From positions 1 through 20,776 of IMG/VR virus record IMGVR_UViG_3300037189_015197: a DNA stretch of 20,776 nucleotides; one strand, 5' to 3'. How positions within the stretch are numbered: the first letter of the stretch is position 1; each line of letters opens with the position of its first letter. The stretch comes from a virus. The translations under genes were made by a program, and so were the position numbers. Of the stretch, positions 1,262 to 14,482 are shown piece by piece. The notes under the pieces were generated by a model. That model ran no database searches and was not told the origin of the DNA. It saw only the letters and a list, made by a program, of their open reading frames with translations.

Positions 1262-2326
1262 GTGGCTGTAATTTCTGACCTACTCTCTAGAGTTCGTCTA
1301 GAGCTGGGTGACCAGCAGAAGCAATTCACCTTTACAGGTCTTGGCGATGGTGTAACTAAAGCTTTTTACGTAGAGCACAAGCCAATTGAGCTTTCCAGTC
1401 TTTATATTAAAGTAGGCTCTACTCAGCTTGCCTACCCCGCTGATTATTCAGTTGAAGAAGATATTGGCGTTATCCACTTTACAACAGCACCTGCTGATTT
1501 GGCGACCATCACAGTTTCTGGTCTAGAAGACCGCTACTTCCTTGATAATCAGCTTTGCCAGTTTATTAACGACGCGCTTACTCAACATACATATAACCGC
1601 ACAGACGCCTTTGGCAGTCTAGTTACTATCAGTTCTGTCCCCGCAGTGGAAGAATACCCACTGGCCATCCTAGCTACTATTGAAGCGCTATGGGCGCTCG
1701 CTACGGATGCGTCTTTTGATATAGACATCACGGCACCGGATGGGGTACATATTCCTCGTTCTGAACGTTACCGTCAGATTAGTTCACTTATTCAACAGCG
1801 TTGGGAACAGTACCGTCAGCTATGCGCGGCGCTTAATATTGGTCTTTGGAAGATTGAAATGGGAACGCTTCGTCGTATATCCCGTACAACTAACAAGCTT
1901 GTACCTGTTTATATGGCACAAGAGGTAGATGATAGCCGTCGTCCAGAGCGCGTTTACATTCAAAATGACCTTAATGGCCGCTCACCGCTACCAACAACAG
2001 CACAGATTTATGACATTACTTTGTATCAAGGAAACTCTTTTGAAGCGGAATTTGACTTTCCATTTGACACAACTGGCTTAGAGTTTGCAGCACAGATTAG
2101 AACTTATCCAAATGCTCCGTCTCTATACGCTACATTTGATATAACTGTTGTATCAACGTCATCAACGTTAAGTAAGATTAAGCTTAGCTTAACTACCGCA
2201 GATACTGATTATATGCCTGTAAGAGCATTCTGGGATTTGAGGGCTACTATGCCAGCTGACCCAAATTATGCGCAGACATATATCAAAGGTCAGGTGTTTA
2301 CAACTCAGGCGGTAACAGTTGACTAG
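1262..2326 (+). CDS. Putative head-tail connector or adaptor protein with a C-terminal fibre-anchoring-like domain
   Basis: The start is GTG at 1262 after AGGGAG. The N-terminal part (residues 1-200) begins with [14 protein letters not shown], a beginning I associate with phage head-tail adaptor proteins. It continues with a beta-rich segment ([31 protein letters not shown]) like those found in phage structural proteins, then helices ending in [15 protein letters not shown]-terminal domain of about 110 residues (from [18 protein letters not shown] to [15 protein letters not shown]) looks like the Ig-like or BppU N-terminal-like module, which in other phages attaches baseplate or fibre proteins. 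Its signs are 'xxYQGNxF', 'AAQIR', 'LSLTTADT', 'FWDLRA' and 'GQVFT'. The gene overlaps the next gene by 8 bases and precedes the long collagen-like fibre, which fits an anchoring role. The adaptor role is an inference; the C-terminal domain call is firmer. Confidence 0.6.
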
Positions 2327-5018
2327 TTGCAACTACTGTTCCTGTAACCCCTGCTGCTGTGGCGCTCAAGGCGTCACAGTTATTCCTTCTTCCCCAATTG
2401 TTGTAACGGTTAATCCGTCAACACAAACAATTACCAACCCAGGCCCTATAACAGTTGTACCTGCTATTCAAGGCGCCACAGGTATTCAAGGGCCACAAGG
2501 TTTTGGTTATGCGCAGATGCAAGGTGTTCAGGGACCGCAAGGTATCCAAGGCGGACCTGGCGCACAAGGAATTCAAGGCGTTCAAGGACGCACAGGTACG
2601 CAGGGTCTACAAGGATTTGGTTACGCGCAACAACGTGGTGCTCAAGGTACTCAAGGAACATATGGCGCTCAAGGTGTTGCCGGTACATCTGTAACCATTC
2701 TTGGTTCGTATAACTCTGAAGCAGAACTTATTGCCGCGCACCCCACAGGTAGCAATGGCGACGGTTACATCATTGACCCATATCTATATGTTTGGATTGA
2801 TACTGCTTGGGTTAACGTAGGTGTTGTTCAAGGTCCTCAAGGTACGCAGGGAACTCAAGGCATTCAAGGTGTGCAAGGCACACAAGGTTTGCAAGGTGTT
2901 CAGGGTGAAACAGGAATCCAAGGATTTGATGGAATACAGGGTACTCAAGGAGTACAAGGTGACCAAGGGGTTCAAGGTTTACAAGGTTTTGACGGCATTC
3001 AGGGAACGCAAGGTTTGCAAGGCGACCAGGGTATCCAAGGCATTCAAGGATTTGATGGTACTCAAGGCACACAGGGTTTACAAGGTGACCAAGGAATTCA
3101 AGGGCTGCAAGGCTTTGATGGAACGCAAGGAACACAAGGTCTACAAGGAGACCAAGGTGTTCAAGGTGAAATTGGTATTCAAGGACTTGATGGACTACAA
3201 GGTTTTGATGGCGCACAAGGCACTCAGGGTCTACAAGGTGAAACAGGTTTACAAGGTTTCACAGGTATACAAGGAGCTGATGGTTATCTAGGCGCGGATG
3301 GTGCGCAAGGAACGCAAGGCACGCAAGGTGTTCAAGGAAGTAACGGACTCCAAGGTACTCAAGGATTACAAGGCGTACAAGGCGCACAGGGCGTACAAGG
3401 TGCTCAAGGTTTACAGGGAACACAAGGCACGCAAGGAACTCAAGGAAATCAAGGTGTTCAAGGAGTTCAAGGCTTACAAGGGCTTCAAGGTGTTCAAGGT
3501 ATTCAAGGAGTTCAAGGCCCTGCAAATTTAAACAACGCTCACCTTTCAGTTTCTTTAGCAACTGCAGCGGTTCTTCCTAACTCACCTACTTACACAGCAG
3601 GAACAACAGATGCTTCTGGTGGAACTGGTATTGGCGCTTATTTACAAGCAACAACTTTTGGTGCTCTTGTAGTTGATGGCGTAACAGTAACCTCAGTTGG
3701 ACAACGTATTTTGGTTAAAGACCAAGTAACAACAACCAATAACGGAATCTATGTAGTAACTACTATTGGTAATGGCTCCACTTACTGGAAACTTACTCGT
3801 GCCTCTGACTATGACGATAGCAGCACAGGAGAAGTTCAATACGGTGATTTTGTTCTTGTAGTTGCAGGAAACACACACTCAGGACAGTCTTGGATTCAAT
3901 ACGCCACTGGTTCACTCTCTGGTGGGGCAATCAAGATTGGCACAGATGCAATCCTTTGGACACAGACTACTGGTACCGGTGCTCAAGGTGCTACTGGTTC
4001 AACTGGTGCTGGTGGAACTATTGCTTACTGGGGTTCTTTCTGGAACACAACAAATGACATTATTTCTAGCACAACAACAGCGTATCCATTGCCGCTTAAT
4101 AGCTCAGACCCTAATAACTTTGGCGTTTCTATACAGAACAGTAGCCAAATTAAGTTCTCTTATGCTGGCGTTTACAACATTCAGTTCTCTGCACAGATAA
4201 AAAACACCGATACTCAAATACATGATGCAAGTTTTTGGATAAGATTAAATGGAACAGATGTCGCAGAAACTCGTGGTGAAATTGCTGTAACATCTTCTCA
4301 CGGAGGTACTGCAGGGTACACCCTTGCTGCATGGAACTACGTACTTAAATTAGCCGCTAATGATTATGTAGAACTAGTATGGCAGTCAGAAAGCACACAA
4401 ATATCATTAGCAACACTAAGTGCTGGAACAAGTCCTACTTCTCCAACATCACCTTCTCTTATCCTTACAGCAACACAAGTTGCTTACGCACTTCAAGGTA
4501 CACAAGGTCTGCAAGGTATTCAAGGACTGCAAGGACTGCAAGGTGCTCAAGGTCTACAAGGTCTACAAGGAATTCAAGGTCTACAAGGAATTCAAGGGCT
4601 TACTGGTTCCACAGGTTCCACAGGAGCAACTGGTTTACAGGGGCTTCAAGGACTGCAAGGTTTACAAGGCACACAAGGTGTTTTAGGTGCGCAAGGAACT
4701 TACTTTGTATCAGCCACTGTTCCAGCATCTCCTGTATCAGGTAATGCTTGGCTAAACACAACAACAGGTCGTCTGTACATTTACGACGGAACTAGTTGGT
4801 TTGAGCCGTATAATAATCAAACTGGAGCGCAGGGTACGCAGGGAATTCAGGGACTTCAAGGTTTTGGTTACGCTCAATTACAAGGTGTTCAAGGAGTGCA
4901 AGGAACACAGGGTATACAAGGCTTAACTGGCGCGGGAACCCAGGGTATTCAAGGTACTGCTGGTCCTGCGGCTACAACAGATGATTTGACCGTTTCTATA
5001 GTAATGCAACGTTTCTAA
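2319..5018 (+). CDS. Collagen-like phage fibre with C1q-like domain
   Basis: An 899-residue modular fibre protein, presumably on the virion surface. TTG at 2319 is the only plausible start: an in-frame TAA lies just upstream at 2313, the next in-frame ATG is about 67 codons downstream, and AGGCGG sits 6 bases before it. Modules in order: a cluster of six cysteines in residues 4-14; Gly-x-Gln collagen-like triplets (about 50-123); a small domain with [18 protein letters not shown] and [13 protein letters not shown] (about 125-169); a long GxQ block (about 170-403); a phage-fibre domain with [16 protein letters not shown] and [12 protein letters not shown] (about 404-553); a C1q/TNF-like beta domain with [15 protein letters not shown] (about 567-722); GxQ again; a short domain with [17 protein letters not shown] (about 793-833); and a last GxQ block. 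The triplets predict trimeric triple helices. No further cysteine is seen after residue 14. Confidence 0.85.
2922..3173 (+). repeat. Four tandem 63-bp units inside the collagen-like gene
   Basis: Units begin at 2922, 2985, 3048 and 3111, each encoding 21 residues: GFDG, then GxQ triplets with one GDQG. The first three units are complete. The fourth is extended, and a degenerate fifth GFDG unit starts at 3201, 90 bases later. Third bases differ between units while the protein repeats closely, so this is an older, selected repeat rather than a fresh duplication. Confidence 0.85.
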
Positions 5019-5028
5019 GGAGTAAGTA

Positions 5029-5337
5029 ATGGCTACTACAACATCAAAGGTTCTCTACCGCGGAGCAGCCTCTACGACAACAACAACTACTCTTTATACT
5101 GTTCCGTCTTTAACTACTACTGTAGTAACTGACATTATTGTTACCAACACCGCCGGAACTGCCGGCTCATTCACTCTTAACTTAGCTGGCGTAAACCTTG
5201 CTACTACCGTAACTGTTGGCGCCTACGACTCAACTGTTATTCCTATGAAGCAAACCCTTGTGGCTACTAACACCATCACTGGAGGAGCGTCCGCAACCAC
5301 TATCAACTTCCACATATCGGGCGTTGAAATCGCGTAA
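5029..5337 (+). CDS. Small beta-rich protein A, paralogue of the protein at 9315-9629
   Basis: A 102-residue protein with extreme Thr content and no signal peptide or membrane segment. It reads as a single beta sandwich: LYTVPS, VVTDIIVTNTAGTAG, SFTLNLAG, then TTINFHISGVEIA. It is clearly homologous to the 104-residue protein at 9315: both share LYTVP, VTNTA, a central KQ and an identical last ten residues (NFHISGVEIA). The start ATG follows TAAGGAG, where the stop of the fibre gene overlaps its ribosome site. Its stop overlaps the next start (TAATG). In both places it stands between a collagen-like protein and adhesins, so it may be a joint or cap of the fibre. I do not recognise a named family. 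Confidence 0.8.
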   Translation: MATTTSKVLYRGAASTTTTTTLYTVPSLTTTVVTDIIVTNTAGTAGSFTLNLAGVNLATTVTVGAYDSTVIPMKQTLVATNTITGGASATTINFHISGVEIA

Positions 5338-5963
5338 TGGACATTTATAAGCTTTCTAATGCGGGAGGTCTAACTACCAAAACGCGTTACTCAAGTATGC
5401 TGGCAGGTAATACAGTATGGAATCCGTATTCTGTTACTGGCTCATATGACTCTTTGGCAACTGTAACATTAAGCGCAAATCAGTCATCTATTGTATTTAG
5501 TAATATTCCTAGCACGTATGCTCATCTTCAAATTCGTGCAATATTTAGAAATACAAATTCAGGCACAGGTGTTGACTGGGTTGATATGCAACTTAATGGA
5601 GATACTGGTTCAAATTATAAAGCACATTATCTTATCGGAGATGGCGGTTCCGCATCAGCCGCAGTAAGCGGATTAACAACAGGAATGATTACCGCGTTAG
5701 GTAATCCCAATAGTGGCAATACAGCAAATGCTTTTGGTGCTGGAATCTTTGATATTCTTGATTATGCAAATACAAACAAATATAAAACTGTACGTACTTT
5801 ACACGGATTAAGCAACAATGCAACAAGTGAAAACTATGTTGGAATTAACTCTGGTTTATGGATGAGTACTGCTGCTATTACATCTATTACTTTATATAAC
5901 AATACGGGTGGTGCAAATTTTGCTCCATATTCTTCCTTCGCACTATACGGGGTGAAAGCATAA
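5337..5963 (+). CDS. Phage fibre protein, stand-alone jelly-roll-like module
   Basis: A 208-residue protein. The first 45 residues (KLSNAGGLTTKTRYSSML, WNPYS) look like a virion-attachment start. The rest matches the N-terminal module of the two following proteins: a strand with 'IVFSNIPSTYAHLQI', 'LNGDTGSNY', 'GDG', 'DILDYANTNKYKT', 'GLWMSTAAITSITLY' and the ending SSFALYGVKA. I know this module from phage tail fibres, where it is followed by variable adhesin domains. Here the adhesin domain is absent, so the protein is a bare module. Both ends overlap their neighbours by one base (TAATG), suggesting translational coupling. The exact fold is inferred. Confidence 0.78.
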   Translation: MDIYKLSNAGGLTTKTRYSSMLAGNTVWNPYSVTGSYDSLATVTLSANQSSIVFSNIPSTYAHLQIRAIFRNTNSGTGVDWVDMQLNGDTGSNYKAHYLIGDGGSASAAVSGLTTGMITALGNPNSGNTANAFGAGIFDILDYANTNKYKTVRTLHGLSNNATSENYVGINSGLWMSTAAITSITLYNNTGGANFAPYSSFALYGVKA

Positions 5964-7318
5964 TGGCTACTAATACATATGTTGCGCTTCAAACACAGAC
6001 GCTTAGTTCAAATACAGCGGCTGTTACTTTTTCATCTATACCATCTGGTTATACAGATTTAGTTATTGTATTTAACGGTTCATTATCAAGCGCAAACTCT
6101 CCTGCTTATAGAATTAATGGAGATACCGCTAGCAATTATTCAGCAACAGATATGACTGGTGATGGTTCTTCTGCTCAAAGCGCAAGAAATAGCAGTGTTG
6201 CTTGGGGTACATTGGGTGGTATGTTTGCAACAGTAACTGCTGGTAATCAATTTTCAATGATTATCAATGTTATGAATTATGCAAATACAACAACATACAA
6301 AACTGTTATGACTAGAACCTCAGTTGCTGGTCAAATGTCAGAAGCGTCAGTTAGTCTTTGGCGTAGCACGGCAGCAGTAACTTCATTTACAGTGCAGGGA
6401 TATAACAATGGTGGAGCATATGCCACAGGCTCAACCTTCACCCTATACGGCATCGCAGCCGAAGGACAGGGTTATGCCACAGGCGGTTTGATTACCTCCG
6501 ACGCTAATTACTATTACCACGCTTTTACTTCATCAGGAACGTTTACTCCAAGCAAAGCACTTACTGCTGACATCCTTGTTGTTGCTGGCGGTGGTGGCGG
6601 CTCAGGCTCTGGAGCAGGTGCTGGTGGCTTATTGACTTTTGCTTCTCAATCTCTTACTAGCGGAACAAGTTATACTTGCACTGTTGGTGCTGGCGGTGCT
6701 GGCTCATCCAATGGACAATCAGCAAATGGTTCTAACGGTGGCAACTCACAGTTTGGCGCATTAACCGCAACAGTGGGTGGCGGTGCTGGTGTTTACACTG
6801 GCGGTAGTTTACTTAATGGTCTTAGCGGTGGTTCTGGCTCAGGTGGAACGCAAGGTGGTGGCTCAGGTTCTGGTGCAGGCTTGGGCGGCGCTGGCACTTC
6901 AGGTCAAGGCTATGCAGGCGGTGCCTCTTACACATTTACGGCATCATCATCTTCATCAGGCGGTGGCGGTGGAGCAGGTGGAGTCGGTGGAAACGCACCA
7001 TCTGTAAACTCTGCTGGAGTTGGCGGAGTCGGTTACACATCATCTCTTATTAACGCAATGGCTTTAGCAACTGGTACTGGTCAACTATCAAGTGGTAATT
7101 ACTACTACGCTGGTGGTGGAGGCGGTGGCTATTATGTCAATGGCTCCGCCGTAGCAGGTGGACTTGGTGGTGGTGGTACTGGCTCATCTAACAATGCTGC
7201 TGGTTCATCAGCGCTAGCAAACACAGGCGGTGGTGGTGGTGGATATTATTCAGAAACCTATAAAACTGCTGTGTACAACGGTGGCTCAGGCGTAATCATA
7301 GTTAGGTACCCAAGATAA
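5963..7318 (+). CDS. Modular tail adhesin: jelly-roll-like module plus glycine-rich domain
   Basis: A 451-residue adhesin, probably exposed at a fibre tip. Residues 1-165 repeat the module of the previous protein (VTFSSIPSGYTDLVIVF, INGDTASNY, NYANTTTYKT, SLWRSTAAVTSFTV, STFTLYGIA). A linker with YYYHAFTSSGTF leads to a glycine-rich domain (about 200-451). That domain opens with ADILVVAGGGGGSG, continues through VGAGGAGSS and repeated GGG runs, and closes with GGSGVIIVRYPR. This opening and closing pair recurs in four other places in the window. Polyglycine-sandwich adhesins with similar composition are known from T-even phage tips (gp38 type), where loops between glycine helices bind receptors; whether the fold is the same here is inference. 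Confidence 0.8.
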   Translation: MATNTYVALQTQTLSSNTAAVTFSSIPSGYTDLVIVFNGSLSSANSPAYRINGDTASNYSATDMTGDGSSAQSARNSSVAWGTLGGMFATVTAGNQFSMIINVMNYANTTTYKTVMTRTSVAGQMSEASVSLWRSTAAVTSFTVQGYNNGGAYATGSTFTLYGIAAEGQGYATGGLITSDANYYYHAFTSSGTFTPSKALTADILVVAGGGGGSGSGAGAGGLLTFASQSLTSGTSYTCTVGAGGAGSSNGQSANGSNGGNSQFGALTATVGGGAGVYTGGSLLNGLSGGSGSGGTQGGGSGSGAGLGGAGTSGQGYAGGASYTFTASSSSSGGGGGAGGVGGNAPSVNSAGVGGVGYTSSLINAMALATGTGQLSSGNYYYAGGGGGGYYVNGSAVAGGLGGGGTGSSNNAAGSSALANTGGGGGGYYSETYKTAVYNGGSGVIIVRYPR

Positions 7319-8694
7319 TGGCAGCAAACTACGTTCTCCTTGAAAAGATAACAGTCGGCGCAACCAAGGCTGCTTCGATTACTTTTAATAACATTCCTCA
7401 AACTGGTTACACTGACTTAAAATTGGTTATGTCTACACGCCTTGATTCAGCATCAGGTGCAAACTTTAACTATGTTAAATTTAATGGAAGTTCAACTGGA
7501 TTTACCATTAGAACATTAGAAGGCAGTGGCAATGGCGCAGGTTCAGGAAGCGGTTCTACTGGCAATGCTGGACTAGATGAAGGCACAAGTTACACCGCTA
7601 ATACATTTTCCAGTACTGATATTTATATTCCCAATTATACATCCAGTAATTACAAATCCTATAGCGTAGAAACCGTTACTGAAAATAATGCGACTGCTGC
7701 TTATATGGAAATGGTTGCAGGGCTTTGGTCAAATACCGCTGCTATCACAAGCGTAACGGTTTACCCTGACACTGGTGGGCGTAACTATGTTCAATACTCA
7801 ACCTTCGCCCTCTACGGCCTAGCCGCAGTCGGCGCTACTCCAGCTATTGATCCAAAGGCTACTGGCGGAGATATCATTCAGACCGATGGCACATACTGGT
7901 ACCACGCCTTCTTGTCCTCTGGAACATTTACTCCGAAGGCCGGACTTACTTGTGATTATCTTGTTATTGCAGGCGGCGGTGGAGGAGGCGGGGGCTGGGA
8001 AGGTGCTGGTGGAGGAGCAGGAGGACTTCGCTCTACAGTAACTGCTACAGGAGGTGGCGGAACACTTGAACCCGCTATATCTTTAAATTCTGGGACGGCG
8101 TATACCGTTACTATTGGCGCAGGTGGAGCTGGAGGCGCTTCAGGTAATAACTTGCACGGTACTCAAGGTTCTAATTCTGTTTTTTCTACTATTACCTCGA
8201 TAGGTGGCGGTTACGGAGCTTCGGGAGCAAACTTAGAAAACGGCGGTAGTGGAGGTTCTGGCGGTGGAACTGGACGCCAAGGAACTGGTGGAACCGGAAC
8301 TTCTGGTCAAGGTTATGCTGGCGGATATAACACAACCTTCACACCAACTGGTGCTTATGCAACTGGTGGTGGTGGTGGAGCTGGTCAAGTTGGAGGTAAT
8401 TCCAGTGCAGATAGCTCTGCTGGTGCTGGAGGCGCTGGCGTATCAATACCATCATTTGCTTCCGCTACCTCTACTGGAGTCAGCAATTATTATGCTGGCG
8501 GTGGTGGTGGTGCTGCTTACACCGGTTCTACTAATGGAGCTGGAGGAGCGGGTGGCGGCGGAGCTGGTAACTATAGTACTCCTACAACAGGAACTGCTAA
8601 TACTGGCGGTGGCGGTGGTGGTGCTCGTATTGATACTGGTGCTGGAGCAGCAGGCGGGTCTGGTTTAGTAATTATTAGATACTCAAGAACATAA
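7318..8694 (+). CDS. Modular tail adhesin, paralogue of the preceding gene
   Basis: A 458-residue protein with the same architecture as its upstream neighbour. A jelly-roll-like module (ITFNNIPQTGYTDLKLVM, NYTSSNYKSYSVETV, GLWSNTAAITSVTVYPD, STFALYGLA) is followed by a YWYHAFLSSGTFTPKAG linker and a glycine-rich domain (CDYLVIAGGGGGGGGWEG to GGSGLVIIRYSRT). The two copies have diverged in both modules, so the duplication is old. Position-specific loops between glycine runs differ strongly (for example ANLENGG and YNTTFTPTGAY), as expected for receptor-binding surfaces. The start overlaps the preceding stop (TAATG). The stop is fused to the next ribosome site (TAAGGAG). Confidence 0.8.
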   Translation: MAANYVLLEKITVGATKAASITFNNIPQTGYTDLKLVMSTRLDSASGANFNYVKFNGSSTGFTIRTLEGSGNGAGSGSGSTGNAGLDEGTSYTANTFSSTDIYIPNYTSSNYKSYSVETVTENNATAAYMEMVAGLWSNTAAITSVTVYPDTGGRNYVQYSTFALYGLAAVGATPAIDPKATGGDIIQTDGTYWYHAFLSSGTFTPKAGLTCDYLVIAGGGGGGGGWEGAGGGAGGLRSTVTATGGGGTLEPAISLNSGTAYTVTIGAGGAGGASGNNLHGTQGSNSVFSTITSIGGGYGASGANLENGGSGGSGGGTGRQGTGGTGTSGQGYAGGYNTTFTPTGAYATGGGGGAGQVGGNSSADSSAGAGGAGVSIPSFASATSTGVSNYYAGGGGGAAYTGSTNGAGGAGGGGAGNYSTPTTGTANTGGGGGGARIDTGAGAAGGSGLVIIRYSRT

Positions 8695-8703
8695 GGAGAA
8701 ACA

Positions 8704-8931
8704 ATGACAGATAAAAAGATTATCGTTGACTGCTCTACTGGGATAGTAACAGAAGTAGAATTGACTGCTGAAGAAATTCAGCAACGTGAACTAGAGGCTA
8801 TTGCAGCGGCTACAGCTAAGGCTGAAGCTGATGCTAGGGCTGAAGCTGAGGCGGACGCCAAGCTTAATGCTCAGGCAAAGCTTGCTGCGCTAGGACTTAC
8901 TCCAGAAGAAATTGCAGCACTAATTAAATAG
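8704..8931 (+). CDS. Small Ala/Glu-rich coiled-coil protein
   Basis: A 75-residue acidic protein preceded by AAGGAG. A short beta start (KKIIVDCSTGIVTEVELT) is followed by a predicted long helix (about 22-62), rich in Ala, Glu and Lys with AEADARAEAEADAKLNAQAK. It ends with LGLTPEEIAALIK. Small proteins that pair an 'x-V-D-C-S-T-G' start with an Ala-rich helix are common after fibre genes in environmental phages; I do not know a demonstrated function. It may be a chaperone or trimerising accessory for the adhesins, by position only. Confidence 0.75.
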   Translation: MTDKKIIVDCSTGIVTEVELTAEEIQQRELEAIAAATAKAEADARAEAEADAKLNAQAKLAALGLTPEEIAALIK

Positions 8932-8951
8932 TTTAAAGAAGCGGATAAAAA

Positions 8952-9314
8952 ATGCCTATTAGCTTTCCAACAACAGGGTTAGTAACTAATGTTACGACCT
9001 ATACCTACCTGGGTCATACCTGGTTGTGGAACGGCACTACTTGGGATTCCACAGGAACTATCCAAGGACTTCAAGGAACTCAAGGTATTACTGGCCTACA
9101 AGGGACTGTAGGGCTTCAAGGCAATACCGGTAACGCTGGAACAACAATAGTTACAGCTAAAGGCGATTTGATTGTTGGAACAGCGTCATCAACAGTAACT
9201 AACCAAGCAATAGGCGGAAACTACCAAACACTTATTGCTGACTCAGCGGTAACTAATGGGTTACGATGGGGAGACGATTTGAGACTATTAGATATTATGG
9301 GAGCGAACCTTTAA
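8952..9314 (+). CDS. Short collagen-like fibre protein
   Basis: A 120-residue protein. It begins with a small domain (VTTYTYLGHTWLWNGTTWDS) related to the 'YxWDGTxW' domains that interrupt the large fibre at 2319. About eight collagen-like GxQ or Gxx triplets follow (roughly residues 37-62), then a C-terminal segment (TIVTAKGDLIVGTASSTVTN, GLRWGDDLRLLDIMGANL) typical of phage fibre ends. This looks like a miniature counterpart of the 899-residue fibre, and the order collagen-like protein, ~100-aa beta protein, adhesin repeats here. The stop is directly followed by the next ATG with no spacer. Confidence 0.78.
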   Translation: MPISFPTTGLVTNVTTYTYLGHTWLWNGTTWDSTGTIQGLQGTQGITGLQGTVGLQGNTGNAGTTIVTAKGDLIVGTASSTVTNQAIGGNYQTLIADSAVTNGLRWGDDLRLLDIMGANL

Positions 9315-9629
9315 ATGGCAATTACAGTAAAAGCCTTAACACGTGCAGCGGCGGCAACATCAAGCGCTACCCTATATACAGTACCTAACTCAAGCACAAC
9401 TACTATTGTTACTAACATTGTAGTAACTAATACCGCAGCCACTTCAGCCACATTTACTATTAACATTGACTCTGTAGCGATATTAAGCGGAGTTTCACTT
9501 GCTGCTAATACTTCGGCTTTCTTTGACCTTAAGCAGGTAATACCAGCTAATGCTACCCCTAAAACAATTACTGGTTTAGCTTCCGCAACTACTGTTAACT
9601 TTCATATCAGTGGCGTAGAGATAGCGTAA
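9315..9629 (+). CDS. Small beta-rich protein B, paralogue of the protein at 5029-5337
   Basis: A 104-residue beta-rich protein, alignable with the 102-residue protein at 5029 along its length: LYTVPNSSTTTIVTNIVVTN, ATFTINIDS, a central LKQ, then LASATTVNFHISGVEIA. The last ten residues are identical. Divergence in the middle (about residues 50-80) suggests an exposed variable face. GGGAG-type bases at 9299-9303 within the upstream gene could serve as its ribosome site. The function is unknown; its position before glycine-rich adhesins is conserved between the two copies. Confidence 0.8.
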   Translation: MAITVKALTRAAAATSSATLYTVPNSSTTTIVTNIVVTNTAATSATFTINIDSVAILSGVSLAANTSAFFDLKQVIPANATPKTITGLASATTVNFHISGVEIA

Positions 9630-9635
9630 TAAACT

Positions 9636-10280
9636 ATGGGCGCAAATATATACCCGGTGCCGGCGTCTACAGCATCTATTACTGACCCTACTATCGGCAT
9701 TCCTACAAACGTAACTTTACGCAACTCGTACACATCAAGCACATCAGGATTATCTTTTCCTGTAACTAACGTCTTTGCACTTGTTGTAGGCGGAGGCGGA
9801 GCTGGCGGTTGTAGCGGTAGCGGCGGATATTATGGCGGTGGCGGAGGTGGCGGAGTAGTTATGGGCTGGATTCCTGCCCCAACTTCCGTAACTGTTGGCG
9901 CTGGCGCTCCTGGCGTAGGAACTAACCAAGCTGGCGGTTCTGGTGGTTATAGTAAAGCAGGACCGCTTATTGCAGGTGGCGGCGGCGGTGGCGCAAACTA
10001 TAACGCTAATGGTGGTCAAGGTTATTATGGTAGTGGTGCAGGATACGGTTACAACGGAACTGCTGGTGGCGGCGCTTACTTAAACGCTTATGGCGGTCTT
10101 GGTGGACAATATGGAACCGGAAGCGGTGGAGACTATCCAACAGGTCTTTTTACTGGTGGTGGTGTAAGCGGTGGTGCTGCTGGACAAGCATATAAAACCT
10201 CTTATGGATATGGTGGCTACGGACGTAACGGTGGTACATCTGGTTCAGGTGGCGCTGGTTTAGTAGAGATTTACTATTAA
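9636..10280 (+). CDS. Short glycine-rich adhesin, copy 1
   Basis: A 214-residue protein. After a short N-terminal segment (about 45 residues, with LRNSYTSSTSGLSFPVT) nearly all is a glycine-rich domain. It opens with VFALVVGGGGAGG, contains GWIPAPTSVTVGAG and SYGYGGYG, and ends GGAGLVEIYY. It lacks the jelly-roll-like module of the longer adhesins, so it must attach through its N-terminal segment. The following gene is a tandem paralogue. Both lack cysteine, except one pair position in this copy (GGCSGSG). The role in receptor binding is inferred from composition and position. Confidence 0.78.
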   Translation: MGANIYPVPASTASITDPTIGIPTNVTLRNSYTSSTSGLSFPVTNVFALVVGGGGAGGCSGSGGYYGGGGGGGVVMGWIPAPTSVTVGAGAPGVGTNQAGGSGGYSKAGPLIAGGGGGGANYNANGGQGYYGSGAGYGYNGTAGGGAYLNAYGGLGGQYGTGSGGDYPTGLFTGGGVSGGAAGQAYKTSYGYGGYGRNGGTSGSGGAGLVEIYY

Positions 10281-10289
10281 GGAGTTCTA

Positions 10290-10952
10290 ATGGGAAGCTC
10301 AACTTTTCCTCTTTCATCAGCTGGTGCGGCAATACCTAGTACAGTTTTAGGCGCAGCTCCCGCTGGACTTACTCTTCGTAATTCATATACATCAAGCACG
10401 TCTGGTTTGTCTTTTCCAGTTTCAATGGTTTATGCAATTGTTATTGGAGGAGGCGGCGGTGGAGGAGGCTACCCTAACTCTCCGTACGGATATGGCGGCG
10501 GTGCAGGTGGACTTGCACAAGGATGGATTCCCGCACCAACCTCAGTGACTGTTGGCGCTGGCGGCGCAGGTGGAGCGAACTCTTATGGTGGTACTGGTGG
10601 AATGAGCCAAGCAGGATACTTAGTCGCAGGTGGTGGCGGCGGCGGTATGGTAAGCAATGGTTCTGTTACTGCTGGCGGTGCTGGTGGAGTTAACGCTGGT
10701 GCTGGCGGAGGAAACTACACAGCTCCTGTAAACTGGCCTTTAATGGGTAGTGCTGGTTCTCCCCCACTAACAATAGGTATTAGTGGTGGTGGCGGACAGC
10801 AAACTGGAAGTTTGATAAACGGTGGCGGAAACGTCAACGCTGGAAACGGTGTTGGGTATAAGACCTCTTACGGTTACGGTGGCGGAGGCACAAGCGGTAA
10901 CGGAGTTGCTGCTAATGCTGGCGGCGGTGGCCTTGTAGAAATCTATTACTAA
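10290..10952 (+). CDS. Short glycine-rich adhesin, copy 2
   Basis: A 220-residue tandem paralogue of the preceding gene. The shared parts are LRNSYTSSTSGLSFPV, GWIPAPTSVTVGAG, YKTSYGYGG and the end GLVEIYY. Loops between the glycine runs differ (for example PVNWPLMGSAGSPP here). The start follows TAAGGAGTTCTA, and the stop is again fused to the next AAGGAG. Codons for the shared segments differ at many third positions, so the copies are not recent. Confidence 0.78.
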   Translation: MGSSTFPLSSAGAAIPSTVLGAAPAGLTLRNSYTSSTSGLSFPVSMVYAIVIGGGGGGGGYPNSPYGYGGGAGGLAQGWIPAPTSVTVGAGGAGGANSYGGTGGMSQAGYLVAGGGGGGMVSNGSVTAGGAGGVNAGAGGGNYTAPVNWPLMGSAGSPPLTIGISGGGGQQTGSLINGGGNVNAGNGVGYKTSYGYGGGGTSGNGVAANAGGGGLVEIYY

Positions 10953-10963
10953 GGAGAAAAAAT

Positions 10964-11155
10964 ATGGCAATGTTTGCAGTTATTAGCAACGATAGAGTTG
11001 TAAATAAGATTCTTGCGGATACAAAAGCAACCGCGGAAGAAGTGACTGGGTTGACTTGCGTGGAGTTTGACGATACGGTTGTCGTACGAATTGGCGCAAA
11101 GTGGGACGGTACTTCTTTTGAAGAGCTAGAGACAGATGGTGTTCCCCCTCTATAA
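10964..11155 (+). CDS. Small fibre-associated protein of unknown function (63 aa)
   Basis: A 63-residue acidic protein with a strong AAGGAG site. It starts MAMFAVISNDRVVNKILADT and continues with EEVTGLTCVEFDD, a single cysteine, and IGAKWDGTSFEE. This pattern (FAVI..G.VVN.IVAD, then TGxTCVE, then WDGTxF) is familiar from very small proteins encoded next to tail fibres in many phages. No biochemical role is known to me. It closes the adhesin block. Confidence 0.78.
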   Translation: MAMFAVISNDRVVNKILADTKATAEEVTGLTCVEFDDTVVVRIGAKWDGTSFEELETDGVPPL

Positions 11156-11183: not shown

Positions 11184-11873
11184 ATGAATATTAAAGTACA
11201 GTTCTCTCATACAGATAACCAAAAGGATTTGTTTCCTCCGGTACCGGCTAGTCAAGTAATACCTGATTGGTATAAGAACTTACCTCCATATATTGGTAAT
11301 CAAAAGAAGCCTTTATTTGATGAGGATTTGACTACAGCCACAGGTAAAAAATGTATGCCTATGTTTGATGCTTTAACAGCCGGATACATCATCTTTCTTC
11401 AAGGTGACATCTATGTAGAGATTAGAGACGGAAAGCCTTTTTACCGTTGGACAAAAGCCAACGATGTTAGGTTTCACCCAGAAAGACAATTTGATGGTCA
11501 CCCAGAATCTCAAGGGTTTGACCTAGCTAAATGGGATAATAAATGGATTATTACTACCCCGCAAGGCTATTCTTCTTTGTTTATTCAACCTGTACATAGA
11601 GAAAGCCCATTTAAAATCCTTGAAGGTGTCGTAGACACTGATACCTACAATAACCCGGTGCAGTTTATTTTTACCCTTAAAGACCCAAACTTTGAAGGGC
11701 TTATTCCCGCAGGCACTCCTATCGCTCAGGTTATACCTTTTAAGAGAGAAACGTACGAAATGTCAGTCGTAGACTTAGATACAGAAAAGCATATGGCAGT
11801 ACGACACTTCTTAAATAATAAATTTTTTGGTGCTTACAAAAGTAAATACTGGAGTAGAAAAGAATACAAGTAA
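11184..11873 (+). CDS. Conserved phage protein of unknown function (229 aa)
   Basis: A 229-residue protein with ATG at 11184 after CGGAG. Recognisable blocks are IPDWYKNLPPYI, KKCMPMFDALTAGYIIFL, a central RFHPERQFDGHPE, WIITTPQGYSSLFIQP, GVVDTDTYNNPVQF, and GTPIAQVIPFKRETYEM near the end. I associate this combination with a family found in marine phages and bacteria, with no established function; the motifs suggest a beta-rich barrel or cupin-like protein. There is no signal peptide or membrane segment. It starts a three-gene insert between the adhesins and the head-tail joining genes, together with a glycan-related propeller protein, so a sugar-linked role is possible but unproven. Confidence 0.72.
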   Translation: MNIKVQFSHTDNQKDLFPPVPASQVIPDWYKNLPPYIGNQKKPLFDEDLTTATGKKCMPMFDALTAGYIIFLQGDIYVEIRDGKPFYRWTKANDVRFHPERQFDGHPESQGFDLAKWDNKWIITTPQGYSSLFIQPVHRESPFKILEGVVDTDTYNNPVQFIFTLKDPNFEGLIPAGTPIAQVIPFKRETYEMSVVDLDTEKHMAVRHFLNNKFFGAYKSKYWSRKEYK

Positions 11874-11884
11874 AGGGCGCTAGT

Positions 11885-12880
11885 ATGAACTTGGTACAAA
11901 AAGCTGTACATTATGGTGGAAAGCTGGCACCTTTAATTATTAATGATTTGCCGTCTAAGACAGGTTTAATGAACCCGTCTGTCTTTATAGATGATGACGG
12001 TGACATTTTAGTTAACCTTCGTCACGTAAACTACACCCTGTATCACTCTGAAAACACACAGCGGTTTATATCTCCTTGGGGCCCGCTATCTTATTTGCAC
12101 CCTGAGAAAGACCAGCGGTTAGTCACAGAAAATTACCTAATGCGTCTCAACACAAACCTTGAGGTTATTAACCACGCCAAGGTAGAGATGCTCTCTCTTC
12201 ACACTCCCGTATGGGAATTTGTAGGACTTGAGGATGCGCGCGTTGTTCAATGGAATGGGCAGTACTACTTAGTTGGCGTTAGGCGTGACACTACTACTAA
12301 TGGCCAAGGTCGTATGGAGTACACGCATATATCTATTGACAAAGACAAGTGGGAAGTAAAAGAAACTAAACGCGTACGCATACCCGCCCCTGAGCCTGAT
12401 GATTCTTATTGTGAAAAAAACTGGGTACCTGTTATTGATATCCCGTATACCTTTGTTAAATGGACATCTCCAGTAGAACTGGTTAACGCCAACCCGTATG
12501 CGCCAGAGTGCACGCAATTATCTGTTAAGCAGGGAATTAAACCGTTGGCTGACCAACGCGGCAGCTCTCACGTCATACCGTGGAAGAACGTAAGAATATC
12601 TATTACCCACGAAGTTACTTTATTTAAGAACTACCTAAACCAGAAAGATGGAATCTACAGACATCGTTTATGTGTTTGGGATGATGAGATGAATTTGGTT
12701 GGGCTCAGTAATCAGTTCTCTTTCTTAGACGCCAGAATTGAGTTCTGTGCAGGCATAGCTAAATTAGATGAGGACTTACTAATTAGCTGGGGATTTCAGG
12801 ACAATGCGGCATTTGTATTGCGTACTCCTGGGGCATTGATAGATGAACTGATTGAGGAGGCAATGACATATGGCAATTGA
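11885..12880 (+). CDS. Five-bladed beta-propeller glycosidase-like protein (GH43/GH130-type)
   Basis: A 331-residue protein, the length of a single five-bladed propeller. Blade-like blocks are LMNPSVFIDDDGDILVNLRH (about 28-47), GLEDARVVQWNGQYYLVGVR (about 114-133), a CEKNWVPVIDI block with KWTSPVEL (about 175-197), RGSSHVIPW with THEV (about 226-245), YRHRLCVWDDE, and IEFCAGIAKLDEDLLISWGF (about 285-304). The 'GxEDAR...G.YY' and 'EKNW.P' blocks are those of GH130 and related propellers. The 'HR...EFC.G...L.IS.G..D' ending is like the propeller found fused to TPR and glycosyltransferase domains in other genomes. The catalytic role is unproven; it might bind or cleave a sugar. It overlaps the TPR-like gene by 11 bases. 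Confidence 0.7.
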   Translation: MNLVQKAVHYGGKLAPLIINDLPSKTGLMNPSVFIDDDGDILVNLRHVNYTLYHSENTQRFISPWGPLSYLHPEKDQRLVTENYLMRLNTNLEVINHAKVEMLSLHTPVWEFVGLEDARVVQWNGQYYLVGVRRDTTTNGQGRMEYTHISIDKDKWEVKETKRVRIPAPEPDDSYCEKNWVPVIDIPYTFVKWTSPVELVNANPYAPECTQLSVKQGIKPLADQRGSSHVIPWKNVRISITHEVTLFKNYLNQKDGIYRHRLCVWDDEMNLVGLSNQFSFLDARIEFCAGIAKLDEDLLISWGFQDNAAFVLRTPGALIDELIEEAMTYGN

Positions 12881-13424
12881 GCACACAGTCGTTGAGTTAT
12901 CCACAGACCCGTTTAACCCAATGTTGAACTTTAAAGCTGCCAAAGAATATGACGAGCTCGGTCAAAGTGCTTCAGCCGTATCTTTTTATCTAAGAACCGC
13001 AGAGTACGGATATGAAAGCCATAAGTATTTGGCGTATCAATCCCTATTAAGAATGTCTATGTGCTTTGAGGACCAGAATGATAGACAACACACGGTGAGT
13101 AACTGCATACTTCAAGCAATAGCTTTGATGCCTAATAAACCGGAAGCATACTTTTTAATGTCTAGGTTCTACGAAAGACAGAGCGCTTGGCAGTCTTGCT
13201 ATACCTATGCTGTGCTGGGGCTTGAACACCCAAGCTTTGAGAACTTGTTTTTAGATTTCCCTGGGCAAATTGGGTTGCTGTTTGAACAGGCAGTTAGCGC
13301 TTGGTGGATTGGCAGACAAGAAGAATCAATAGCTATATTTAACGACCTATTGACCCGTAAGCTGCCGGAGTCCTACAGACAGGCTATTAATAACAATTTA
13401 AATAGGATTAATCCAGTAGGTTAG
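12870..13424 (+). CDS. TPR-like helical repeat protein
   Basis: A 184-residue helical protein. Paired helices with TPR-like spacing are visible: FNPMLNFKAAKEYDELGQSA with AVSFYLRTAEYG (about 16-49), YLAYQSLLRMSMCFED then NCILQAIALMPNKPEAYFLM (about 54-100), SAWQSCYTYAVLGLEHP, and WWIGRQEESIAIFNDLL. ATG at 12870 is preceded by GAGGAGG at 12854-12860. TPR repeats of this type, with 'PNKPEAYFLMSRFYE', often sit next to or are fused with glycosyltransferase and propeller domains. Here the propeller is encoded by the overlapping upstream gene and no transferase domain is present, so the pair may be a split or reduced version of such a protein. Confidence 0.72.
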   Translation: MAIEHTVVELSTDPFNPMLNFKAAKEYDELGQSASAVSFYLRTAEYGYESHKYLAYQSLLRMSMCFEDQNDRQHTVSNCILQAIALMPNKPEAYFLMSRFYERQSAWQSCYTYAVLGLEHPSFENLFLDFPGQIGLLFEQAVSAWWIGRQEESIAIFNDLLTRKLPESYRQAINNNLNRINPVG

Positions 13425-14030: not shown

Positions 14031-14201
14031 ATGCCAGCAAAATCAAAGGGACCTAAGAAGGTCGAAAAAGTAATGAAGGAATACGGCGAAGGAAAGCTGC
14101 ATTCTGGCTCCAAGAAGGGCCCACAAGTAAAGTCTAAGAAGCAAGCAGTAGCTATTGCTATGTCCGAAGCTGGTATGGCAAAAAAGAAAGGTAAGAAGTA
14201 A
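14031..14201 (+). CDS. Small lysine-rich protein, DUF6496-like (56 aa)
   Basis: A 56-residue basic protein (17 lysines) with ATG 14031 after AGGAG. KVMKEYGEGKLHSGSKKGP followed by VKSKKQAVAIAMSEAGMAKK matches what I recall of DUF6496, whose members have 'VMhEFk.GkLkSGS...V.nrKQAiAIaLSEA'. Such proteins occur in phages and bacteria and their function is unknown. DNA binding or packaging help is a guess from charge. The stop overlaps the next ATG (TAATG). Confidence 0.75.
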   Translation: MPAKSKGPKKVEKVMKEYGEGKLHSGSKKGPQVKSKKQAVAIAMSEAGMAKKKGKK

Positions 14202-14482
14202 TGGCAATTAGTTCACGTAAATTTGGAAGCGGAGATATCTCTAACTGGGCTCCAGTAGTAGTTGACCCAACAGCATCTGTTACAGACATTTCTATTCAAA
14301 ACCTAAGCGGCACCAATAGTGTTTATCTTTCACTTGATGCTGATTGGAATAAGCAGTTTGCTTATCTAGCTACAGGTCAACTTATTTCTTTTGAAGGTTT
14401 AACAGCAGATGATGCAAAAAGAATTTTCATTACAAATGACGGCGGAGATGCCGAAGTTGGGGTTATCGTAATTTCACGATGA
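14201..14482 (+). CDS. Small beta-rich protein preceding the LamG adhesin (93 aa)
   Basis: A 93-residue protein with a beta-rich pattern: VTDISIQNLSGTNSVYLSLD, AYLATGQLISFEGL, AKRIFITNDGG and AEVGVIVISR. It resembles the two ~100-aa proteins at 5029 and 9315 in size, beta content and position directly before an adhesin, but I see no clear sequence identity. The start overlaps the upstream stop (TAATG), and the stop overlaps the downstream start (ATGA). A structural joint role is inferred from position only. Confidence 0.75.
   Translation: MAISSRKFGSGDISNWAPVVVDPTASVTDISIQNLSGTNSVYLSLDADWNKQFAYLATGQLISFEGLTADDAKRIFITNDGGDAEVGVIVISR

What the first reader, a model, noticed from the sequence alone, without database searches (positions are those of the whole stretch)
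2319..10952. Two tandem host-recognition cassettes with the same gene order
Cassette one is collagen-like protein (2319), ~100-aa beta protein (5029), adhesins (5337, 5963, 7318). Cassette two is short collagen-like protein (8952), ~100-aa paralogue (9315), adhesins (9636, 10290). The ~100-aa proteins share their last ten residues and align along their length. The LamG adhesin at 14479 is likewise preceded by a small beta-rich protein (14201). The repeated order suggests a reusable unit in which a small joint protein connects a fibre to interchangeable tips, and one phage may carry two alternative or co-assembled recognition systems.
Basis: partly seen in the sequence, partly recalled or inferred. 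Interest (0 to 1): 0.72.

Follow-up and report, generated by a model that had tools for sequence, protein, structure and literature searches.

The report
Phage fibre-to-tip snap-on joint proteins
This water-virus genome carries two copies of a small protein that, across many kinds of bacteria-infecting viruses, sits between a tail fibre and its host-recognising tip and probably acts as a standard coupling that lets tips be exchanged.

Summary
The two cassettes are real. The ~100-aa proteins at 5029 (S1) and 9315 (S2) are homologues (54%, E=1.9e-24), but each has closer kin in other phages, so this is no recent tandem duplication. S is a confident all-beta sandwich (pLDDT 96) with hundreds of relatives in environmental phages and distant ones in cultured Streptomyces siphophages and cyanophages. 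Three additions. (1) Upstream proteins of different kinds share a C-terminal 'plug': 99 of 129 tails against 43 of 1823 others. (2) Many tips start with a 'dock' peptide (84 of 141); S similarity tracks the tip start (r=0.43), not the plug (r=-0.09), and S residue 67 separates the two main dock classes in 104 of 106. (3) In 23 loci, the window included, a K-dock S is followed by exactly three old paralogues, only the first docked; I infer a heterotrimeric tip held by one chain. Best reading: S is a structural adaptor, generic for fibres, selective for tips. Not shown: binding (a single-chain model did not dock). The proposed third unit (14201) is not a family member.

The parts
2319..5018 (+). 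fibre 1, 899-aa collagen-like protein (TTG start as listed)
   Evidence: Pfam Collagen E=4.4e-53; phage tail fibre PHROGs
4974..5015 (+). C-terminal plug of fibre 1, [14 protein letters not shown]
   Evidence: plug pattern on 99 of 129 distinct proteins directly upstream of S against 43 of 1823 other C-termini
5029..5337 (+). S1, 102-aa joint protein, dock class K
   Evidence: 54% identical to S2; AlphaFold2 pLDDT 96.1, all-beta; among class-K rows in the tree
5227..5229 (+). Asp67 codon of S1, the residue that best separates the dock classes
   Evidence: D in 53 of 54 class-K rows and 1 of 52 class-FP rows
5337..5963 (+). tip subunit 1: dock peptide (residues 1-35, DIYKLSNAGG..TRYSSMLAGN) plus J domain (36-207)
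   Evidence: strict K-dock pattern on 34 of 141 proteins directly downstream of S against 2 of 1160 other frames; J domain
5963..7318 (+). tip subunit 2: J domain (5-164) without dock, then glycine-rich domain
   Evidence: Gly_rich_2 E=5.4e-16; groups with other position-2 domains
7318..8694 (+). tip subunit 3: J domain (4-167) without dock, then glycine-rich domain
   Evidence: Gly_rich_2 E=1.2e-23; in the position-3 clade, support 98
8704..8931 (+). 75-aa charged protein closing cassette 1, role unknown; may not belong
   Evidence: similar C-termini within five genes after 18 of 130 S copies only; no Pfam match above cut-off
8952..9314 (+). fibre 2, 120-aa protein with a short collagen-like stretch
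   Evidence: blastp to 2319 E=9e-7, low-complexity filter off; Collagen 20.3 bits, below cut-off
9270..9311 (+). C-terminal plug of fibre 2, DDLRLLDIMGANL and the residue before it
   Evidence: as for fibre 1
9315..9629 (+). S2, 104-aa joint protein, dock class FP; Thr66 at the place of Asp67
9636..10280 (+). tip with FP dock (MGANIYPVP), glycine-rich
   Evidence: FP-dock pattern on 50 of 141 proteins directly downstream of S against 39 of 1160 others
10290..10952 (+). second tip with FP dock (MGSSTFPLS), glycine-rich, paralogue of 9636 (56-57% over ~113 aa)

Best explanation
S1 and S2 are small beta-sandwich adaptor proteins of the virion. Each probably takes the C-terminal plug peptide of a fibre (or, in Streptomyces siphophages, of a tail-hub-like protein) on one face and the N-terminal dock peptide of a tip on another. 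The plug is a common fitting; the dock comes in classes and is probably read by S segments around residues 56-71 and 10-19, above all residue 67. Fibres and tips can therefore be exchanged without re-engineering each other, as long as S and tip move together. In cassette one the tip is inferred to be a heterotrimer (5337+5963+7318) held by the single docked chain 5337; in cassette two, 9636 and 10290 each carry a dock and are alternative or co-mounted tips. SHOWN: homology, fold model, gene order, plug and dock statistics, S-dock association, conserved trio. INFERRED: physical binding, stoichiometry, presence in this phage's virion, host recognition.
For: Gene order around 192 S genes in 158 loci. 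Plug: 99 of 129 upstream tails against 43 of 1823 others. Docks: a strict pattern on 84 of 141 proteins directly downstream; K 34 of 141 against 2 of 1160, FP 50 of 141 against 39 of 1160. S-dock association: the K and FP labels need 13 and 11 changes on the S tree against 43 and 42 shuffled; Mantel S-head r=0.43 (p=0.005, the least possible with 199 permutations), S-tail r=-0.09, tail-head r=-0.03, 88 rows. Residue 67 agrees with dock class in 104 of 106. Trio: 23 of 38 runs of J genes after S are exactly three genes and not cut by a contig edge, first docked, others not; best other-locus hit has the same position in 75 of 77. Patterns formed elsewhere hold in 10 Streptomyces phages that I opened (of 172 records matched): the hub-like protein ends in MGVW or MGVY in 10 of 10 (directly upstream of S in 9), the protein after S has Pro at residue 7 in 10 of 10 (my FP pattern fits 9), and residue 67 is Gly, never Asp, in 10 of 10. 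Virion: the S homologue of cyanophage S-SCSM1 (38.8 bits) lies between two tail fibre genes and is labelled 'virion protein'; its paper reports 45 proteins detected by mass spectrometry of purified virions (passages).
Against: No interface was seen: in the read-through single-chain model S and J are confident, but the plug (blocks of pLDDT 45-60) and dock (48-62) are not. 30 of 129 upstream tails lack the plug pattern; some follow a tip gene or other gene rather than a fibre. 57 of 141 downstream proteins lack a strict dock. The plug is not recognisable in Xanthomonas PhiXhv-15 or S-CAM1. Plug and dock patterns were drawn after looking at the same loci, and my automatic dock labels contain errors. 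S-dock linkage is partly shared ancestry: on well-supported branches only one independent pair exists. S also follows the tip's residues 45-110, more weakly (r=0.17). I did not see the list of MS-detected proteins.
Confidence: 0.72

Rival explanations
1. S is an assembly chaperone that folds or trimerises the tip or fibre and leaves, like Tfa proteins.
For: Small separate gene next to fibre and tip. [quoted passage not shown] The association of S with the tip's N-terminus would also suit a chaperone.
Against: The S homologue of S-SCSM1 is labelled a virion protein. A chaperone of the tip would not explain a shared C-terminus on upstream proteins of different kinds. The S model lacks a helical trimerisation domain such as gp25 has.
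Confidence: 0.15
2. S is itself a minor receptor-binding or decoration protein carried with the fibre genes, and the shared plug and dock ends serve fibre-tip contacts that do not involve S.
For: Beta-sandwich folds are common in both roles; PDB look-alikes include a trimeric phage cement protein and sugar-binding domains.
Against: S lies between the plug and dock genes in most combinations; tail and head do not covary with each other (r=-0.03), whereas S and head do.
Confidence: 0.1
3. The cassettes are recombination units: S and the end peptides are conserved because their DNA serves as crossover points for tip exchange, with little structural role.
For: Mosaic arrangement, several S copies in 27 of 158 loci; in isolated freshwater actinophages a variable island holds part of the tail fibre gene and two collagen-like proteins (PMC10202952, passages).
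Against: Conservation is seen in proteins, with dock classes matched to S residues, and the same pattern occurs in Streptomyces phages whose S is only about 35-53% identical. DNA-level conservation at the junctions was not measured.
Confidence: 0.03

Closest known systems
T2/S16 gp37-gp38 long tail fibre with glycine-rich tip adhesin
   Same: A glycine-rich tip on a fibre, attached by its N-terminal part (PMC9608196 passages describe S16 gp38 and its attachment to gp37)
   Different: There the tip attaches to gp37 itself; here a separate ~100-aa protein lies between in gene order, the dock peptide is ~10-35 aa, and dock classes go with S types
Myocyanophage Pam3 fibre gp24 and chaperone gp25
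   Same: Tip with beta and glycine-rich domains; small partner protein with a beta-sandwich domain (passages)
   Different: gp24 is one homotrimeric protein reaching to the baseplate; gp25 has a helical trimerisation domain; S has none in its model
T4 long tail fibre gp34-35-36-37 (gp35 role recalled)
   Same: Several proteins joined end to end, one small joint (gp35)
   Different: gp35 is a single knee protein; S is a widespread family with varied partners and several copies in some phages
Branched tailspike systems with shared anchor and docking domains, such as CBA120 and G7C (recalled)
   Same: One virion mounts several receptor-binding proteins through conserved N-terminal docking parts
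   Different: Docking domains are part of the spikes; no separate portable adaptor that I recall
Bacillus Ena endospore appendage subunits
   Same: Among the best structural matches of the S model (7a02 Z 8.9, 8pdz Z 8.7)
   Different: Disulfide-linked pili by their title; S1 and S2 have no cysteine

Membership tests
S family (joint protein, defined here) | matches the profile built from 106 S sequences | tested here: met
   in the 44-kb contig S2 E=3.1e-40, S1 E=1.7e-39; both are among the 106 rows, so this is by construction; the independent evidence is E=1.9e-24 between them
S family (joint protein, defined here) | 14201 protein as a third member | tested here: not met
   4.3 bits against the profile; not among the two matches
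Tfa/gp25 tail fibre chaperones | C-terminal helical trimerisation domain (as described for gp25) | tested here: not met
   S model is strands only, no helix of 4 or more residues
Tfa/gp25 tail fibre chaperones | absent from the mature virion | tested here: inconclusive
   S homologue of S-SCSM1 labelled virion protein; not tested for this phage
gp38-type tip adhesins (for the tips) | glycine-rich domain of stacked glycine motifs | tested here: inconclusive
   Gly_rich_2 above cut-off in 5963, 7318, 10290, below in 9636, none in 5337; phrog_863 E=4e-8 to 2e-5 in 5963, 9636, 10290; the glycine-rich part was not modelled
gp38-type tip adhesins (for the tips) | direct attachment to the fibre trimer | not testable with these tools
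   needs complexes or virions
Ena appendage subunits | jelly-roll fold | tested here: met
   7a02 Z 8.9, rmsd 2.5, 90 residues aligned; tied with nucleoplasmins and others, a common fold
Ena appendage subunits | cysteines for inter-subunit disulfides | tested here: not met
   no Cys in S1 or S2; the title of 7a02 calls Ena disulfide-linked
C1q/TNF-like trimeric caps on collagen (BclA, collagen X) | trimeric jelly roll at the end of a collagen stalk | tested here: inconclusive
   1c28 Z 7.1, 1gr3 Z 6.9; oligomer state not tested; S is a separate chain

The most novel reading that the evidence does not exclude
S is a general coupling of tailed phages: one small adaptor fold that takes a common fibre plug on one side and class-coded tip docks on the other, shared by contractile- and non-contractile-tailed phages of actinobacteria, cyanobacteria and others. 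One of its dock classes mounts obligate heterotrimeric tips through a single chain, so three different receptor-binding subunits sit on one joint.
Probability: 0.45. Interest if true: 0.86.

Novelty: new variant of a known kind. Interest (0 to 1): 0.72.

Why it matters
How phages change host range without redesigning their fibres is an old question. A portable adaptor with readable plug and dock peptides would give a rule for predicting which tips fit which fibres from sequence alone, would give a role to a family of mostly 'hypothetical' proteins (172 Streptomyces phage records matched, 88 mostly cyanophage records, duplicates included), and would make tip exchange directly testable in laboratory phages such as R4. 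Heterotrimeric tips with one docked chain would be an unusual architecture for receptor-binding proteins.

Tried and rejected
Recent tandem duplication of one cassette: rejected, S1 and S2 are 54% identical while, the window's own contig aside, S1 has an 84% and S2 an 81% relative elsewhere. 14201/14479 as a third cassette: rejected. S-CREM2 ORF84, a 'tail fiber attachment' protein in that phage's virion proteome table (passage), as an S homologue: rejected (0.8 bits). A small closing gene with a common C-terminus as a general cassette feature: only 18 of 130. Co-variation of plug and S: none found. A salt bridge between Asp67 and the dock lysine: left open, because docks with Glu in that place (MGVYELSGAG) also go with Asp67. 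Prophage relatives: 1 of 28 pattern matches in genome contigs, in a scan that used a single peptide pattern, so no host was learnt. Ten paper searches, open-licence library only, listed no title or abstract start that names such a joint; I opened passages of five papers and no whole paper, so this is weak evidence of absence in print. Fold searches: no PDB row for the J domain stood out (best Z 7.9, 8beu, 127 residues); the model was that of L153, not of the window.

The two residue-67 exceptions (L046, L140) look on inspection like errors of my automatic dock label (L046's tip begins MAVYKFSSSS; L140's neighbour has no recognisable dock); I kept them as exceptions in the count. The same kind of error is in the labels. 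Rows dropped: L002 and L082 (the window's apparent contig), L001, L161; S longer than 125 aa left out of the tree; 88 of 134 rows had both neighbours complete enough for the Mantel test; one search used only S under 107 aa with a K or FP label (106 rows). The search for related loci kept the best 80 of 481 and of 409 relatives, so weaker relatives are under-sampled. An earlier gene-calling pass missed S genes under opposite-strand frames; counts are from the second pass (onward) unless said. In one search the eight J genes of L086 were given positions 1-2-3 by their order, an assumption.
Full report
What the window is. The window is a whole 20,776-base virus record. A 44-kb IMG/VR contig (L002/L082) has identical S1, S2 and 14201 proteins and the same gene lengths around S; I take it as the same or a near-identical phage and did not align the two in full. 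The window carries a major head protein at the left end (phrog_1357) and a tail sheath and tail tube at the right end, so it is a contractile-tailed phage. The nearest sheath among deposited phages is about 40% identical, in Streptomyces phages of the BRock group; in one of them, pSt2308, a tailspike gene lies between capsid and sheath genes. An actinobacterial host is a guess, no more.

The two small proteins are homologues. S1 (5029) and S2 (9315) match at E=1.9e-24, 54% identity over 102 columns. In a tree of 134 S sequences S1 lies among proteins of one type and S2 among another; S1's best relative is 84% identical and S2's 81%, in other phages. The cassettes were therefore put together from different sources or diverged long ago; they were not recently duplicated in place. 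Few forks of that tree are well supported (9 of 131 inner branches starred), so only the gross pattern is used.

Family and context. Protein searches of viral contigs gave 481 and 409 related places, of which the best 80 each were kept. In 158 loci I found 192 S genes; 131 loci have one, 23 two, one three, three four (one of the fours, L130, includes two fused forms). After removing identical sets there are 154 combinations: 142 have a same-strand gene within 150 nt upstream (7 have an opposite-strand gene, 3 are at a contig edge, 2 are farther), 149 downstream (4 at an edge, 1 farther).

The plug. The upstream proteins differ in body but many end alike: a hydrophobic residue, Met, then two to four residues and the stop, as in window 2319 (..[13 protein letters not shown]) and 8952 (..GDDLRLLDIMGANL). 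The pattern fits 99 of 129 distinct upstream tails and 43 of 1823 other C-termini of the same loci. Several of the 43 look like fibre proteins set off from S by one or more genes. I drew the pattern after seeing the data, and tails are not independent, so the Fisher value (1e-103) should not be read as a probability.

The docks. Many proteins directly after S begin with a short peptide of one of a few classes: FP (start, three to five residues, aromatic or Ile, Pro; window 9636 MGANIYPVP, 10290 MGSSTFPLS) or K (window 5337 DIYKLSNAGG..TRYSSMLAGN). Strict patterns: K 34 of 141 against 2 of 1160 other frames, FP 50 of 141 against 39 of 1160, either 84 of 141. A clade of mostly longer S proteins (97-124 aa, most 108-124) goes in most rows with plugs ending in ..MGA and with other tip starts. 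In the tree the K and FP labels need 13 and 11 changes against 43 and 42 in shuffles, none of 500 as low. In 88 rows with both neighbours, S similarity follows the tip's first 34 residues (Spearman r=0.43, p=0.005 with 199 permutations), less so the tip's residues 45-110 (0.17), and not the fibre's last 14 residues (-0.09); tail and head are unrelated (-0.03). So the plug looks generic and S travels with the tip.

Where specificity may lie. Of the 16 S columns that best separate K from FP, nine lie at S1 residues 56-71, with residue 67 first, six at 10-19 and one at 86. Asp67 occurs in 53 of 54 K rows and 1 of 52 FP rows. On a tree built without residues 54-72 the dock label changes 10 times and Asp67 11 times; but only one independent pair lies on well-supported branches, so this test cannot reach significance. 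In the window S1 has Asp67 and a K dock follows; S2 has Thr and FP docks follow.

The trio. The part of 5337 after its dock is homologous to the N-terminal parts of 5963 and 7318. A profile of this J domain shows 38 distinct runs of J genes after S: 23 are exactly three genes not cut by a contig edge, 8 are single, 3 are two; of 4 cut by an edge, 2 have two, one has one, one has eight. In all 23 trios the first gene has 29-40 residues before J and a K-type start; the second and third have 1-5, except L105's second (21, start probably miscalled). Not every K-dock S has a trio: others have, for example, one ~300-aa glycine-rich tip, and two of the 8 single runs have K docks (L104, L123; the other six FP). 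The edge run of eight (L086) reads as docked, undocked, undocked, repeated. In a tree of 86 domains position 3 is one clade (98), position 2 needs 3 changes and position 1 seven, against about 22 in shuffles. The best match in another locus has the same position for 75 of 77, and beats the own-locus paralogue in 77 of 77. Three old paralogues kept in fixed order, only one with a dock, point to a hetero-oligomer, most simply a heterotrimer held by one chain. This is inference.

Cultured phages. Window S1 and S2 gave no tblastn match in 50,697 phage records, but a typed consensus (85 Streptomyces records) and then natural relatives did. Saftant S matches 172 Streptomyces phage records, duplicates included. 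In ten that I opened, from six genera, a minor tail protein (in Sitrop's own record by HHpred like the 80alpha tail-associated protein gp58) ends in MGVW or MGVY in 10 of 10, directly before S in 9 of 10 (Itza has one gene between). The next protein has Pro at residue 7 in 10 of 10 (MGFNVIPAP, VGLSVWPAP, VPTTWYPYD and so on; my FP pattern fits 9), in several followed by a collagen-like stretch, and in some phages further genes repeat the dock (Saftant VGAGLYPPP, MGASIYPPP). Residue 67 is Gly in 10 of 10. In four cyanomyophages the upstream protein ends in another way (TP[LF]ILALG, then 1-2 residues: P-SSM2, S-T4, S-SRM01, S-SCSM1, 4 of 4) and the downstream start also differs (..[SG]GR..); the neighbours are labelled tail fibre in P-SSM2 and S-SCSM1, otherwise in S-T4 and S-SRM01. 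Pontimonas phiPsal1 ends ..ALMLMGG and Pelagibacter HTVC026P ..LPLAIALG upstream, without a dock that I recognise downstream; Xanthomonas PhiXhv-15 and S-CAM1 show neither clearly.

Structure. S1 with 106 rows folds with mean pLDDT 96.1, pTM 0.84, eight strands, no helix. The best solved look-alikes are Ena spore appendage subunits (7a02 Z 8.9, 8pdz Z 8.7), plant and animal nucleoplasmin-like domains (about 8-9), a haloarchaeal virus turret (8.3), a phage cement protein (7.9) and, at about Z 7, C1q-type caps of collagen stalks; this is a common fold and names no function. Among predicted viral structures, matches include proteins labelled virion (structural) protein in S-TIM5, S-SCSM1 and MaMV-DC. 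A second model of fibre end, S and tip in one chain (L153, 119 rows) gave confident S and J domains but low confidence for the plug and dock segments: no support for docking, though a single chain of unknown stoichiometry is a poor test.

In the virion? The S-SCSM1 homologue (gene 27) is labelled 'virion protein' in its record, between 'long tail fiber protein (virion protein)' and 'tail fiber protein (virion protein)'. The paper reports 45 proteins found by mass spectrometry of CsCl-purified phage (passages). I did not see the list, so that gene 27 is one of the 45 is an inference from the label.

Verdict. The best reading is a structural adaptor with a common fibre side and a class-specific tip side. 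The chaperone rival is weaker but alive until a virion structure or a binding experiment is done.

Noticed in passing
window 14201-16842: 93-aa protein whose only relative found is on the apparently same contig, directly before a 787-aa protein with two glycine-rich stretches; the latter starts MTFKFNSRIVGRRRYGS, faintly like a K dock (by eye)
   Followed up: partly
window 11184-13424: three genes (phrog_7084, weak DUF6065; weak GH130-like; weak match to a phage beta-1,4-glycosyltransferase family); in L004, L006, L007, L009 and L129 one or two genes that look like the last two (by eye, no alignment run) lie on the opposite strand between the fibre and S
   Followed up: partly
L110 and L112 about 8294-8760: a 155-aa protein with a Cys-rich start (MNSKGCVTCGAE..) stands directly after S; in L112 the K-dock tip follows it at 8764; possibly an inserted gene
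   Followed up: no
L086 from about 12130: eight J-domain genes in a row after S, as docked/undocked/undocked repeats, run cut by the locus end
   Followed up: partly
L130 12734-14920: two genes whose N-termini match the first 60-70 positions of S and continue into long repeats (SSTDGITWT..); L059 10681-12183 has S-like sequence at its C-terminus: apparent S fusions
   Followed up: partly
L005 956-1618: two S genes back to back before one tip
   Followed up: no
window 2319-2380: fibre 1 begins with a cysteine cluster ([12 protein letters not shown]), unlike fibre 2 (FPTTG..WNGTTW), so the two fibres may attach at different places
   Followed up: no
window 8704-8931 and 10964-11155: each cassette is followed by a small gene (75 and 63 aa); the second matches phrog_14370
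   Followed up: partly
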